Shown here one piece after another: positions 2,015 to 63,555 of a stretch of 64,000 bases of DNA (positions are counted from its first letter, which is position 1; every line of letters begins with the position of its first letter). Under the pieces are notes generated by a model. The model did no database searches. It was given only the letters and a program-made list of their open reading frames with translations, and had not been told where the DNA came from. This DNA is from Bolinopsis microptera (Eukaryota > Ctenophora > Tentaculata > Lobata > Bolinopsidae). The DNA is taken from the NCBI RefSeq assembly GCF_026151205.1, contig NC_087077.1, positions 3,968,001 to 4,032,000 of the forward strand. Reading direction: 5' to 3'. The position numbers were made by a program, and so were the translations under genes.

Positions 2015-3210
2015 ACAGTTCAGAAGAGGTCTGTTCCTACCCTCCCTCAGATACTTGCCCTATGACGCATCCTAGAAGAGTGTAAAATCGGAAATCAATC
2101 AGCAGCTATCGTGTTCGTCGACTTTTCGAAAGCATTCGACAGTATCAACAGAGATGCCTTGTTTCACATCCTCTCCCTCTACGGCGTCCCTACTCCCATA
2201 ACTGATGCTATCAGGCTCCTGTATGACTCATCACACTCCAGAGTCAAAACCATTGACGGCCTTACGGACTTCTTTAGAACACTCATCGGGGTCCTCCAGG
2301 GTGATACACTCGCTCCTTTCCTCTTCGTCATCGTCCTCGATTATGTCCTTAGGAACTGCATGACTCTTGACCATGGCCTTACCATCATCCCCAGGCAAAG
2401 TTGGAGAGTACCTGCGGTCAGAGTCACAGATCTTGACGACCTGGCCTTGTATGCCGATAACATAGAGCAAGTCCAACAACTGCTCTCGGACTTAGAGACT
2501 GCAGCAGCACATGTCGGACTTGCGATGAATGCTTCCAAGACCGAATACATGACCATCAACATTCCTGATGCTGCCCTCGTGAACTCAATATCCGGTTACC
2601 AGATCAAGCAGGTTGATGACTTCAAATACTTGGGCTCATATATTGCAGAGAGCAGTCGAAGGACTTCAACACCAGGAAAGGCATGGCTTGGTCAGCTTGT
2701 ATCAAACTGCAGAAGGTATGGACCTCTGGCATTTCTAACCAGCTGAAAGTCAAGTTCTTCAGAGCATGCATCGAACCTGTTCTGCTGTATGGCTCAGAAA
2801 CCTGGACCTTGAACAAGCAGTTTGAGAAGCGTCTCGACGGGTGCTACACCAGGCTCCTAATGAAAGCCAGGAATCTTTCATGGAAGAAGCATCCAACCCT
2901 AAAGCAAATCTATGGTGACCTACCTTCCATCTCCACCATCGTTGCACAGAGACGTGCCAGATTTGCTGGGCATTGCATGAGAGCTTCAGACCAGGTCATC
3001 TCTACCATCCTTCCTTGGCGGCTGCCACAGTTCAGGCGTGGGAGGAGATCACTCTCTTTTCTTGACACCGTAGCCAGGGACACAAGGTTGCGGGTAGAAG
3101 ATCTCCGAACGGTTATGTGCGACAGAACCATCTGGAGACGTAGAGTGGAGGAGATTTCGATCGAGCATCGCCCAAAGTAAAGTAAGTAAAAAAGTAAGTT
3201 CCTTGCGAAG
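2015..3210 (+). pseudogene. Degraded LINE reverse transcriptase (family A)
   Basis: The frame gives a reverse-transcriptase core: ILAL-(stop)-RILEECK, then VFVDFSKAFDSINR (motif A), GVLQGDTLAPFLFVI (motif B) and LALYADNIEQ (motif C). The second catalytic aspartate of the usual YADD is Asn here. After a one-base insertion near 2655 the frame shifts and continues as GMAWSACIKL, LLYGSETWTL, FEKRLDGCYTRLL and RRARFAGHCMR, the typical thumb and tail of this class, ending at 3180. A TGA at 2062 and a frame break near 2035 lie upstream. The end is followed by an AAGT-rich tail. It is non-functional; the clade is uncertain. Confidence 0.8.
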
Positions 3211-48331: not shown

Positions 48332-53261
<4,930 letters not shown>

Positions 53262-54089
53262 TCCTTTTGGGAATTAGTAGACTGATAGGTGTTTTATTCA
53301 TGTCATCATTGACCTGGAATGCAGATATTTTATTGAGATTAATATCACGTAACCATTTTTTTTACACTTGTAATTGTGGGTATATTGTATCACAAATGAG
53401 TGGATAAATCCAAAACCATAAAATTCTCTGCCAAGAAAACAACAATTTGCAGTATGTAAAACAAAGTTATCAGTGAGTATTATTAACAAATATCATTTAA
53501 TTATAGATTACGGCGACGAAATGAGAGTTTCCACTCACTGAAAAAACGAAATACATCATGTATTGTCAACGTTTCGGCTACATTCCTTTGTCATAGACGA
53601 AAATCCGGAAATTAACACACAGTTATCTGAGCCTATAAGTAATGGAGACTAAATTAAATATACTTGTAAATTAATGTAAGGAACTTTTCTTTATGAAGTC
53701 GATCTAGCTAGTTAAATTATGTGGAGAATATGTGAAACGGAATAAATTAGTTGAAATAAAGTAACGAGTTCCATCGTCAACAAAATACTTTATACACTTA
53801 ATATGTAGGGATTTTTAAATCCTATGTCAGGTAATGAATATATTAAGTAATTAAATATGGACCAATTGAGTACAAAAATATTTGATATGAGGAGTGTCAG
53901 ATTACGACTTAAGTTTGTCATGTGTATCTAGGAGACCTTATCAATCAAGGAAAAAGAAATTAACATGGTAAGAAGGCAAATTTAAAAACCGCAAAGTATT
54001 TAAATACACGACAAAGGCGTTTTTATGTAAAACAGCAACATTCATTAAATTCAAACGGTTCTTTCAGATCGCAAATGAAATTTGATGAA
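53262..54089. other. DHX38 5' flank, no gene seen
   Basis: Within 60 bp upstream of the ATG the transcript strand has an acceptor-like TTCCAG (about 53312), so the 5' untranslated region may be spliced. Beyond about 53550 the sequence includes CAACGTTTCGGC and TTTGTCATAGACGAAA, which look repeat-derived. Confidence 0.35.
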
Positions 54090-59920: not shown

Positions 59921-62900
59921 TCACGATTTGAGCCAGAGAATGGTGGTGGTAGCAATAGCAGCCAGGAAGCATCCTGCCAATATCCGCCGGTGGTTCTGAA
60001 GAAAACTCGGCTGACTGAAGTACTGGTAATCCATGGCGATGCCGATGATGCGAAGACGTGACGCTATCTCGTTGAGAACATGTGAAGAGTCGTCACCAGG
60101 TGACATGTTTGACCGGGAGTAGTAACGGTCGTTGAGCCGGTCCGCTATCACCGTTAAACGGGCTGCTATCACGTCTGCTTGGATGTCAGGGTGGCTTAGG
60201 ACACCTAGAGATAATGATATGTTAATTATGTAATGGGGTTAATGACTATGATAAAATTAATGATTATTAGTTAATTCTTTAGAATAAATCAGATTATCAC
60301 TTTAAATCATTTTAGTTTATGAACAATGGATTTTGAGTACGTGTGCATTATCTTATTATCGCCGTAGATCCTCCCCCATAAAATTTCAAATTTGCAATCC
60401 CTGACTCCATAGTTAATGACTATGCTATTGCTAAAATTAATGATTATATTTGTTAATTCTTTAGAATAAATCTGAACGTTACGTCTCAGGATTGATCAGC
60501 GATGTTTTATATTGAGAATTGAGGACACAATTTAGTAAGAAAGTGAGGTCAGGTACCCAAGTAAGTGGGTCACGTATATTATGTATGTTATATATTATGT
60601 CACGTATGTAATTAATTCATTCTCAGATTATCACTTTAAATCATTTTAGTTTATGAACAATGGATTTTGAGTACGTGTGCATAATTTAATCTATTATCGC
60701 CGAAGATCCTCCCCCATAAAATTTCAAATTTGCGATCCGTGACTACAAAAAACAAAGGCCATTAAGCAATGTGAGTAGGCATTAAATGGGAAGGCACTTA
60801 AGTCGCCATATAAATGAAGTGTCAAGATCAAGATCTATTAGGGATTCCCCCAGGACCACACGACCATAGAGACTACGTTCATTGGAGGAGAGCTCTTGAA
60901 GTCTGGCTCTGAGCCAATAATTTGAGAGTAAGAGTAGGTATTGCGTGAGGTTGTGACAAAGTGTTACAGACGACACAACCCGGCATCCTAACATAATCGC
61001 CTACCTCAGACAAATTCAGCCGCTAACTAGTCATAGTTGCCGACAAATGCGGGGACGTTAAGGCAGCAGATTTTTACCGTTATTAATATGCAATTCCTAT
61101 GCTCCGATCTTCACACATCACAGCGGAAATTTGAGGTTTAGAAATGCCAGGTTGAACAATTTTTTCACCGGGGAAACTCTACATATTCTGTAATTTCTTT
61201 GTAAAAGTTTCGAAAAGTCAAGTATGAAACTGACCACTGTTAAGACGCTCCAGGAACTCCTCATTGCTCCCCTCTGATAGCAGTCGCAACCGACTGTAGG
61301 ACTGAGGCGTTAAACTACCTGAAATAGAGAAGATTAGTCTTCTTATTATTATTAATACTATTACTACTGTCTACTAACTGTCTCTTATTAATTCTTATTA
61401 ATTTAGATTGAAACAAAGTGGCCTGGTCTTTCTTAGAGGTCATAATTCATGCGATTAAAACCAAGACACAAGTTGGTAACTCACCATGTATATGGGTACG
61501 TCTAAAGTTGTGAGGAATAGGTGCCAGTCTGTTAGGCTCACTAGGTTGACGCATAGGCGAGCTGGCGGTTAGGGGTGATCCCAGCGAGTCTATTATTATC
61601 GGCTGTAAAAACTTTCTATTATCTATCTGTTCGGCAGGTTACATCTTTTTTCTACACGATGTTAATATTCAAAATAAATTGTTATAATCTCTATTCAATC
61701 GAAAGTCAAGAAAAGCGAAGAGTTTCAAACACAAGAAAATATTTTAAAACGTACCACAGCTTCGTCCACTTCGTTAAATACGTCGTCCATCTCGTCGTCT
61801 GGTATCTCTGCGATTTCGTTGAGGTAAAGCTCGAAATCAGTCAAGGATTCCCCCACCCCTGAATGTATACCTGAATGTCAAGATCTCACGATAGAGTCCC
61901 AGCAAGACGGGCAGGACTTGTGGGACTGTGCCGCGCATGCACGTGCACAATACATGCAACTTATTATCATGCTCAGCCGGGTAAACCCGTAATTCATGGT
62001 CATAATTTGTTTCATATTCATTTACGTGAAAAGTTTGACATCAATCAGTTTAATCGAATAAATTGTATTATTATCAATATTATAATTAATTGATAATTAA
62101 TACTACAATTAGCCGATAAAATAGGCACATTATAATATAAAGAGGACTAACCGGAATCGTAACGGCTGAGATTTGGGCACCTGCAGTGAATGGGGCTGTC
62201 GGGGAGCGCATTATCTCGACCTGATCTGAAATAGTGGAAGCCTATTAAAATTCAATATACGCCATTAATGACTTTCTGATATCAACTGACAATGTAAGGA
62301 ACTAAAGTTTTGGATAGTAGTAAGGGATAACAATATGTCAAGCAGTAAAATATTGTCTCTGAAAATAGCCAGTTTAATCAATTGACAGATTAGCAACTAA
62401 ATACTAGAGAATTTATTGTCGCTATTTTTTTGACAGCGAAATTTCATTGGCTTATAAAAATGCATGAGTGATGGCAAATTGCCAAGTCACCGCACCACTT
62501 TCTGGTGAAGGGAATTGCTGAATTTGATTAATACCTTAATGACAACTGGCTCATTTCAGACAAATTGTTTTATTGGTAACATTTATCACAACTCAATTTG
62601 AAGATTGATTAAGAATCTGTCAACTCAGAAACTTCTTAATCTTATGATCTTGATCTTCGTAAGTGAGCTAAAATCGATGAAAATAAGACTAATGCTAGGT
62701 CGGTTCCTAACCAATGGTTGATTGATTATTCTGAAGAACGCAACTCGACTGCCATACACTAAAGAAGCCGGCACTGTTACTGTTGAAGACACACCAGTGC
62801 AGTGAAGACAGTGATTTTACTAACTCTGGCGCGATTATATCTACCAACACTTGCTCGTGTGCTGTCTGCACGAGCTTCTAATCAGACCAGAGATAATATG

Positions 62901-63555
62901 GCGGAGCACAATATCACGACAATATCACGACAGTACCAGAACAATACCAGGACAATACCAGGACAATACCAGTCCGACAATACCAGGACAATACCACGAC
63001 AATTATACCAGGACAATACCAGGACAATACCAGGACAATACCACGACAATTATACCAGGACAATACCAGGACAATACCAGGACAATACCAGGTCGATACC
63101 AGTCCGACAATACCAGGACAATACCAGGACAATTATACCAGGACAATACCAGGACAATACCAGGTCGATACCAGTCCGACAATACCAGGACAATACCAGG
63201 ACAATACCACGACAATTATACCAGGACAATACCAGGACAATACCAGGACAATACCAGGACAATATCAGGACAATCAGGACAATACCACGACAATTATACC
63301 AGGACAATACCAGGACAATACCAGGACAATATCAAGACTAAAATATATAGCAGATAAGATATAAAAGCGTGCGGTTGATAGTGTTTTGTTTCTAGCAGAT
63401 CGGTTTTTATATTTCCGTTTTATAATCCTGTTGATTTGTATATACCGTTTTGAAAATTTTTCAAATCTAAATCTAATATTTACTTACAGTAAAGTTGGGA
63501 GATCACGTGACTCTGGGTCCGGGCTAGGCGGTTCTTCTTTTCGTCTCTTTGACAT
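59921..63555 (-). CDS. BH3-only candidate, tail-anchored protein, six exons
   Basis: Exons 63488-63555, 62152-62225, 61755-61870, 61485-61602, 61235-61318 and 59921-60204 join in phase to 247 aa, starting MSKRRKEEPP. Residues 166-178 read IAARLTVIADRLN, which fits the BH3 consensus: hydrophobic positions I166, L170, I173 and L177, small A174, invariant D175. It is followed by DRYY much as in BIM. Residues 228-245 (ILAGCFLAAIATTTILWL) form a single C-terminal membrane segment flanked by HRR and KS, a typical outer-mitochondrial tail anchor. There is no BH1 (NWGR-type) or BH2 motif, so it is not a multidomain BAX or BAK. Residues 46-52, DSGIHSG, equal the beta-catenin degron core. Expected role: pro-apoptotic sensor binding BCL-2-like proteins. 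Other possibility: an unrelated tail-anchored protein with a chance BH3-like helix. Confidence 0.72.
60285..60745. repeat. Direct duplication in intron 5 of the BH3 gene
   Basis: About 60290-60410 and 60622-60745 share AGATTATCACTTTAAATC, TTATGAACAATGGATTTTGA, GTACGTGTGCAT, GATCCTCCCCCATAAAATTT and GATCC-TGACT, with a few changes. Confidence 0.85.
62925..63335. repeat. 11-bp minisatellite in intron 1 of the BH3 gene
   Basis: The unit CAATACCAGGA repeats over 410 bp with variants CAATACCACGA, CAATTATACCAGGA and CGATACCAGTC that recur as blocks of 60-90 bp. All six frames stay nearly open because 11 is not a multiple of three and the unit lacks stops; the resulting open frames are not genes. 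Confidence 0.95.

What the first reader, a model, noticed from the sequence alone, without database searches (positions are those of the whole stretch)
61855..62160. A beta-catenin-type DSGIHS degron in the BH3 protein, with tandem acceptors that could remove it
Residues 46-52 are DSGIHSG, the same core that beta-TrCP reads in beta-catenin after GSK3 phosphorylation; S47 has S51 at +4, as GSK3 requires, and E55 lies at +4 from S51. The motif spans the exon 2/3 junction. The acceptor region reads CATTCAG-GTATACATTCAG-GGG: acceptors at exon starts 61870 and 61858, 12 nt apart and both in frame. The downstream acceptor would delete IHSG and leave DSGVGES, destroying the degron. This would be a splice switch for stability of a death protein.
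Basis: partly seen in the sequence, partly recalled or inferred. Interest (0 to 1): 0.8.

Follow-up and report, generated by a model that had tools for sequence, protein, structure and literature searches.

The report
Split degron at tandem splice acceptors
A probable cell-death protein carries a short 'destroy me' signal right at a splice junction with two possible acceptor sites, but both ways of splicing leave a recognisable version of the signal, so the proposed on/off stability switch is not what the sequence shows.

Summary
On the minus strand exon 2 ends GATTCCG and exon 3 can begin at 61870 or 61858, both in frame. This gives DSGIHSGVGES (247 aa) or DSGVGES (243 aa) in a protein with a BH3 core (LTVIADRLN) and a probable tail anchor.

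Three corrections. (1) The short form keeps a degron class: DSGVGES is DSG(X)3S, the spacing of NF-kB p105's beta-TrCP site DSGVETS. (2) A splice model from 25 introns of this genome favours the downstream acceptor (5.17 against 3.15). The only YTNAY branch-point motif lies 20 nt from it but 8 nt from the upstream AG. Both AGs outscore 79 of 80 decoys, so a real tandem site is plausible. (3) The GSK3 relay is incomplete: Glu55 is at the priming position. The genome's beta-catenin keeps the relay, and its DSG|IASG degron is split at the same glycine.

A beta-TrCP degron in a BH3-only protein, in a region missing from other splice forms, is known from BimEL. No RNA or orthologue data were available. 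Best reading: a candidate degron with a splice-variable spacer, not an on/off switch.

The parts
63488..63555 (-). exon 1, N-terminus MSKRRKEEPPSPDPESRDLPTL; holds two of the three lysines of the protein (K3, K6)
   Evidence: ATG start, donor CT|gtaagt; frame continues into exon 2; lysines
62152..62225 (-). exon 2, ends GATTCCG (D46, S47 and the first base of G48); donor gttagt
61859..61870 (-). the 12-nt optional segment GTATACATTCAG between the two acceptors; its inclusion adds four residues (DSG-IHSG-VGES instead of DSG-VGES)
61871..61872 (-). upstream acceptor AG (exon starts 61870): gives DSGIHSGVGES
   Evidence: genome-trained score 3.15, above 3 of 25 curated acceptors; no YTNAY branch point at -12..-30
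61859..61860 (-). downstream acceptor AG (exon starts 61858): gives DSGVGES
   Evidence: genome-trained score 5.17, above 9 of 25 curated acceptors; TTGAC with branch A at -20
61877..61881 (-). candidate branch-point motif TTGAC, branch A (61878) 8 nt before the upstream exon start and 20 nt before the downstream one
61755..61858 (-). rest of exon 3, encoding VGESLTDFELYLNEIAEIPDDEMDDVFNEVDEAV; begins with the G-run GGGTGGGGG
61485..61602 (-). exon 4
61235..61318 (-). exon 5
59921..60204 (-). exon 6: BH3 core IAARLTVIADRLN (residues 166-178) and C-terminal hydrophobic stretch ILAGCFLAAIATTTILWLK (228-246), stop
   Evidence: no second copy found in the genome

Best explanation
The gene encodes a tail-anchored BH3-only-like protein. 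Its N-terminal region carries a candidate beta-TrCP phosphodegron whose invariant DSG is made at the exon 2/3 junction. Shown: two strong in-frame acceptors 12 nt apart give either DSGIHSGVGES or DSGVGES. Inferred: the downstream acceptor (61858) is the main or co-main site, because the only good branch-point motif is at the normal distance from it and too close to the upstream AG. Inferred: either form can be bound by SCF-beta-TrCP once Ser47 and a downstream Ser are phosphorylated, the long form as DSG-Phi-x-S and the short form as DSG-Phi-x-E-S like p105. The acceptor choice would then vary the spacing and the kinase preference, or make little difference, and would not switch the degron off.
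For: Both frames confirmed. DSG(X)3S is listed as a beta-TrCP motif for ATF4 and p105, and DDG-Phi-x-D as one read without phosphorylation (passages of PMC10487276); the p105 motif is DSGVETS (passage of PMC10470808). Genome-trained acceptor scores are 5.17 (downstream) and 3.15 (upstream); downstream wins in 929 of 1000 bootstraps; the true AG was top within 30 nt in 25 of 25 leave-one-out tests. YTNAY in -12..-30 is present for 19 of 25 curated acceptors and for the downstream AG, absent for the upstream AG; over 4005 AGs of this strand 1371 have it. AGs under 12-15 nt from the branch point can be bypassed (passage of PMC1431707). beta-TrCP is present: D domain and most of the WD40 region. 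A split DSG|IASG degron exists in this genome's beta-catenin, so an intron inside such a degron is tolerated.
Against: No RNA, orthologue or binding data. A generic metazoan acceptor matrix scores the two AGs equally (3.94 upstream, 3.87 downstream). The genome-trained matrix rests on 25 sites, 4 of them from this gene. One curated beta-TrCP acceptor has its only YTNAY (CTGAC) at -9, and 6 of 25 curated acceptors have none at -12..-30, so the upstream AG is not excluded. By the usual first-AG rule the upstream AG could win. Neither form has been shown to bind beta-TrCP.
Confidence: 0.45

Rival explanations
1. The motif has no degron function. DSGIHSG is a chance product of a phase-1 junction beside a noisy tandem acceptor, where the G comes from the junction and the Ser from the acceptor's own TCAG.
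For: TCAG in 16 of 25 curated acceptors and G at +1 in 17 of 25; DSGxxS in 235 of 20,000 shuffles; 7 strong in-frame tandem AG pairs on this strand of the window; another phase-1 junction of the same gene gives NSGVLS at residue 152; only three lysines, K3, K6 and K246.
Against: All seven residues equal the human beta-catenin core (recalled), including the hydrophobic position; DSG plus hydrophobic plus x plus S in only 56 of 20,000 shuffles. BimEL is ubiquitinated on Lys3 and Lys112 in a published scheme (PMC4695108 legend), so few, N-terminal lysines do not exclude it.
Confidence: 0.3
2. The upstream acceptor is constitutive and the protein simply carries a beta-catenin-type degron.
For: First-AG preference (passages of PMC7317903 and PMC1431707); the upstream AG outscores 79 of 80 decoy AGs; the generic matrix gives it 3.94 against 3.87; beta-catenin of this genome has the same DSG|I.SG split in the same phase.
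Against: Lower genome-trained score and no branch-point motif at a normal distance; Glu55 in place of the GSK3 priming residue.
Confidence: 0.15
3. One reading: the upstream acceptor gives a degradable protein, the downstream acceptor a stable one, and the choice is regulated.
For: Both acceptors look real; a 9-nt G-run begins at the short exon start, a possible hnRNP H/F site (recalled, untested); shorter Bim isoforms made by splicing are known (PMC4695108).
Against: The short form keeps DSG(X)3S and puts Glu at the second phosphosite; local RNA folding is unremarkable (z -0.77, 42 of 200 shuffles as stable); no evidence of regulation.
Confidence: 0.08
4. The degron was borrowed from beta-catenin by exon shuffling, since both genes split it at the same glycine.
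For: Same motif core, same phase, same codon.
Against: No flanking similarity clearly beyond chance: donor side 46 of 500 shuffles as good, acceptor side 273 of 500; flanking protein sequence looks unrelated by eye.
Confidence: 0.02

Closest known systems
BimEL and its beta-TrCP phosphodegron (Dehan et al. 2009, not held here; seen as cited in PMC6193418 and PMC4695108)
   Same: BH3-only protein with a BH3 core (Bim LRRIGDEFN, here LTVIADRLN), an N-terminal lysine at position 3, a phospho-region read by beta-TrCP that other Bim isoforms lack.
   Different: Bim's site is Ser93/94/98 phosphorylated by RSK after ERK, not DSGIHS. Bim splice forms differ by 56 aa or more between BimEL and BimL; here the choice changes four residues and leaves a degron-like motif.
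beta-catenin N-terminal degron
   Same: DSGIHSG, identical over 7 residues to the human core (recalled). This genome's own beta-catenin reads DSGIASGSTTSPPS and is split by an intron at the same G.
   Different: beta-catenin has the Ser-Ser-Thr-Ser ladder for GSK3 and CK1; here the third rung is Glu55.
NF-kB p105 (DSGVETS) and ATF4 DSG(X)3S degrons
   Same: The short isoform DSGVGES has the same spacing, and a hydrophobic residue after DSG as in p105.
   Different: In p105 the motif is C-terminal; no phosphorylation data here.
Tandem in-frame 3' splice sites (NAGNAG and longer spacings)
   Same: Two YAG acceptors with a short in-frame difference.
   Different: Spacing is 12 nt, not 3; use of both sites is untested.

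Membership tests
beta-TrCP phosphodegron DSG-Phi-x-S | Sequence D-S-G-hydrophobic-x-S | tested here: met
   DSGIHS at residues 46-51 of the long form; absent from the short form
beta-TrCP phosphodegron DSG(X)3S | Sequence D-S-G-x-x-x-S | tested here: met
   DSGVGES at residues 46-52 of the short form; class described, p105 DSGVETS. DSG(X)2-4S as a class is found in 627 of 20,000 shuffles
beta-TrCP phosphodegron (either) | Cognate beta-TrCP present with degron pocket | tested here: met
   D domain 44.9 bits; 272 aa of hand-joined WD40 region, 458 bits to F-box/WD repeat-containing protein 1A. The arginines in GLRDNT, SKDRT and SGDRTIK, recalled as phosphate contacts, are kept in the alignment
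beta-TrCP phosphodegron (either) | Phosphorylation-dependent binding and ubiquitination | not testable with these tools
   needs a binding assay
beta-catenin-type GSK3 relay | Ser/Thr every fourth residue up to a primed site | tested here: not met
   S47, S51, then E55; intact in this genome's beta-catenin
BH3-only proteins | BH3 core L-x-x-h-small-D-x-h-N/D (pattern recalled) | tested here: met
   LTVIADRLN at 170-178; the pattern is met by 150 of 20,000 shuffles
BH3-only proteins | No other Bcl-2 homology domain; optional tail anchor | tested here: met
   no Pfam Bcl-2 match (made on preliminary joins; one search gave one sub-threshold match, HAAS, 15.2 bits against a cut-off of 27); best hydrophobic 19-mer is residues 228-246 of 247
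BH3-only proteins | Detectable homology to a known member | tested here: not met
   no Bcl-2 family match among PDB sequences (hits at E 0.15 or worse, unrelated) or in Pfam
BH3-only proteins | Binding to a Bcl-2 groove and killing | not testable with these tools
   a possible partner only: one weak Bcl-2 match in the genome, 21.6 bits, under the cut-off of 31.4
Alternative tandem acceptor | Two acceptors of real strength, in frame | tested here: met
   3.15 and 5.17 against 80 decoys of which 1 reaches 3.15
Alternative tandem acceptor | Both used in transcripts | not testable with these tools
   no RNA data

The most novel reading that the evidence does not exclude
The tandem acceptor is a spacing switch inside one degron: the same DSG is joined either to IHS (beta-catenin/IkB spacing) or to VGES (p105 spacing with an acidic residue at the second phosphosite). 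A four-residue splice choice would then change which kinases license destruction of a death protein, with the intron placed at the same glycine as in the animal's own beta-catenin.
Probability: 0.07. Interest if true: 0.6.

Novelty: new member of a known kind. Interest (0 to 1): 0.3.

Why it matters
If confirmed, it would extend beta-TrCP control of a BH3-only protein to another animal lineage and give a compact example of splicing that re-spaces a phosphodegron. It also shows a general trap: phase-1 junctions with TCAG acceptors tend to spell 'G..SG' when a tandem acceptor lies 12 nt away, so motif readers should expect chance DSGxxS-like matches at such junctions.

Tried and rejected
Exon shuffling from beta-catenin was tested by local alignment of both sides of the junction and found not clearly better than shuffles (donor side 46 of 500 as good, acceptor side 273 of 500).

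An RNA hairpin hiding one acceptor was considered; folding is not unusual (z -0.77).

A 12-nt duplication as the origin of the second acceptor: the units GACATTCAGGTA and TACATTCAGGGG agree at 9 of 12 positions by eye (sequence), but both contain the acceptor consensus, so this is not strong evidence.

A self-trained gene finder overfitted (1837 introns in about 112 kb) and was dropped. A stricter list of 30 exons was used only to find sites; a curated set replaced it. The first curated set of 21 gave 1.89 for the upstream and 5.0 for the downstream site; four DHX38 sites were added, which raised the upstream score to 3.15.

No orthologue search was run: the genome collections on offer are described as bacterial, archaeal, viral or plasmid, and metagenome scans were capped at 0. 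No structure prediction was run.

The exact-motif search for DSGIHSG in the genome gave 3 hits, none with both serines; it cannot see a motif split by an intron. The first beta-catenin query with the N-terminus found nothing; an armadillo-repeat query found the gene.

Prior work on a tandem acceptor editing a degron was sought in three searches (listings only). No such case was seen among the 2, 10 and 4 papers listed; one search counted 58 in all, so 48 were not seen.

Full report
What is there. The finding lies in a gene that I model with six exons on the minus strand. The assembled protein is 247 aa with the upstream acceptor and 243 aa with the downstream one. Its last exon carries IAARLTVIADRLN, a good BH3 core by a recalled pattern, which 150 or 172 of 20,000 shuffles match depending on the pattern used. 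It ends in a hydrophobic stretch ILAGCFLAAIATTTILWLK, a probable tail anchor. Bim's BH3 core is given as LRRIGDEFN in PMC4695108 (passage). No Pfam or PDB sequence match supports the family by homology (one search gave one sub-threshold, unrelated match), so 'BH3-only protein' rests on the motif plus the tail. The last exon has no second copy in the 264.7-Mb genome (one other match at E 8.2). The genome shows one weak Bcl-2 match of 21.6 bits, below the curated cut-off, reading VVAWIKSIGGW, which looks like a BH2 motif.

The motif. Exon 2 ends GATTCCG. With exon 3 starting at 61870 the junction reads D46 S47 G48 I49 H50 S51 G52 V53 G54 E55 S56; starting at 61858 it reads D46 S47 G48 V49 G50 E51 S52. 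DSGxxS appears in 235 of 20,000 shuffles of this protein and DSG-hydrophobic-x-S in 56 of 20,000.

Why chance is higher than those figures suggest. The glycine straddles a phase-1 junction, and 17 of 25 curated acceptors in this genome have G at +1. The second serine is encoded by the acceptor's own TCA-G, and 16 of 25 curated acceptors read TCAG. A tandem acceptor 12 nt apart in this phase will therefore often spell GxxSG. Another phase-1 junction of the same gene spells NSGVLS at residue 152. Strong in-frame tandem AG pairs (both at least 3.1, spacing 3 to 18) number 7 on this strand of the window.

Does the downstream acceptor destroy the degron? Not by published motif classes. PMC10487276 (passages) lists DSG-Phi-x-S, DSG(X)3S (ATF4, p105) and DSG(X)4S (CDC25A), and an unphosphorylated DDG-Phi-x-D in CDC25A/B. 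PMC10470808 (passage) gives the p105 motif as DSGVETS. The short form DSGVGES fits DSG(X)3S with a hydrophobic residue after DSG, and has Glu at the position of the usual second phosphoserine. Ser52 of the short form also has Asp at +3, a casein kinase 2 consensus (recalled). The short form does lose the stricter DSG-Phi-x-S form.

Which acceptor is used? A generic metazoan matrix (written from memory) gives 3.94 upstream and 3.87 downstream, a tie. A matrix from 25 acceptors of this genome (4 from this gene, 6 DHX38, 6 beta-catenin, 9 beta-TrCP, boundaries judged against recalled human proteins) gives 3.15 for 61870 and 5.17 for 61858. Without this gene's own sites the values are 3.37 and 5.91. 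The downstream site wins in 929 of 1000 bootstraps. In leave-one-out tests the true AG was the best within 30 nt in 25 of 25. Among 80 decoy AGs near those sites, 1 reaches 3.15 and that one also exceeds 5.17, so both AGs here look like real acceptors. The only YTNAY branch-point motif within 45 nt is TTGAC, with its A at -8 from the upstream exon start and -20 from the downstream one. YTNAY falls in -12..-30 for 19 of 25 curated acceptors, against 1371 of 4005 for all AGs scanned on this strand of the window. PMC1431707 (passages) states that AGs closer than about 12-15 nt to the branch point can be bypassed, and that AGs less than 12 nt apart compete; the spacing here is just 12. Against this, one curated beta-TrCP acceptor has its only YTNAY at -9, and the first-AG preference is strong in general (passage of PMC7317903). 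I put the downstream acceptor as main or co-main, with modest confidence.

The kinase. In this genome's beta-catenin (armadillo region 41% identical to a recalled human fragment over about 100 aa) the degron reads FIDSGIASGSTTSPPSDD, so Ser-Ser-Thr-Ser at four-residue spacing is intact. In the BH3 protein the third rung is Glu55. Glu might mimic priming, but the statement 'as GSK3 requires' goes too far; IKK- or CK2-like kinases are equally possible (inference).

An unexpected parallel. The beta-catenin degron of this genome is itself split by a 180-nt intron at the same glycine and phase, GACTCCG|gtcagt..actcag|GTATCGCTTCTGG, against GATTCCG|gttagt..attcag|GTATACATTCAGG here. Flanking similarity is not clearly better than shuffles (46 of 500 as good on the donor side, 273 of 500 on the acceptor side), so I read it as coincidence. 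It does show that a functional-looking degron can be split this way.

The beta-TrCP D domain is found at 44.9 bits, and 272 aa of hand-joined WD40 region score 458 bits against F-box/WD repeat-containing protein 1A in the PDB.

What is known. A beta-TrCP degron in a BH3-only protein is described for BimEL: Ser93/94/98 phosphorylated by RSK after ERK, ubiquitination on Lys3 and Lys112 (legend and passages of PMC4695108; passages of PMC6193418, which also notes doubts about the mechanism and says that the region with the ERK and RSK sites is in BimEL, with a binder that does not bind other isoforms). BimL and BimS arise by splicing within exon 2. The idea of splicing away a degradable region of a death protein is therefore not new. 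[quoted passage not shown] the phylum of this genome is not known to me.

Verdict. Observation confirmed, interpretation partly supported. The stable/unstable switch is unlikely as stated. A candidate degron with a splice-variable spacer is the fair description, and coincidence remains a serious rival.

Noticed in passing
locus L014 about 2380-2840, minus strand (G000:C6, about 19.299 Mb): The genome's beta-catenin is diverged (41% identity to a recalled human armadillo stretch) and its DSGIASGSTTSPPS degron is split by a 180-nt phase-1 intron after DSG.
   Followed up: yes
window 61235 / 60204, residues 152-157 of the protein: A second junction of the same gene gives NSGVLS, a near-miss of the same motif, again with a junction glycine.
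   Followed up: partly
window 59921-60204, minus strand: After the BH3 core a second amphipathic stretch IASRLRIIGIAMDYQYFS also resembles a BH3 motif but lacks the Asp after Gly (sequence; judged by eye).
   Followed up: no
window 62908-63338: A minisatellite of 11-nt unit ACAATACCAGG, about 36 copies, fills part of intron 1.
   Followed up: no
window about 48.5-53.3 kb, minus strand: The next gene looks like a DHX38/PRP16-type DEAH helicase with a large open frame 51060-53273 (DEAD domain; gene name recalled).
   Followed up: partly
L012 1501-1596, G000:C2:8745776-8745871: Weak Bcl-2 family match, an exon with a BH2-like VVAWIKSIGGW; a candidate partner for the BH3 protein.
   Followed up: partly
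window 61850-61858, minus strand: A G-run GGGTGGGGG begins exactly at the short exon 3 start; such runs can bind hnRNP H/F (recalled) and might influence acceptor choice.
   Followed up: no
window about 62058-62111 (intron 2) and L008 1501-1555: A 55-base piece of intron 2 is 85% identical to a place on another contig, perhaps a small repeat fragment.
   Followed up: no
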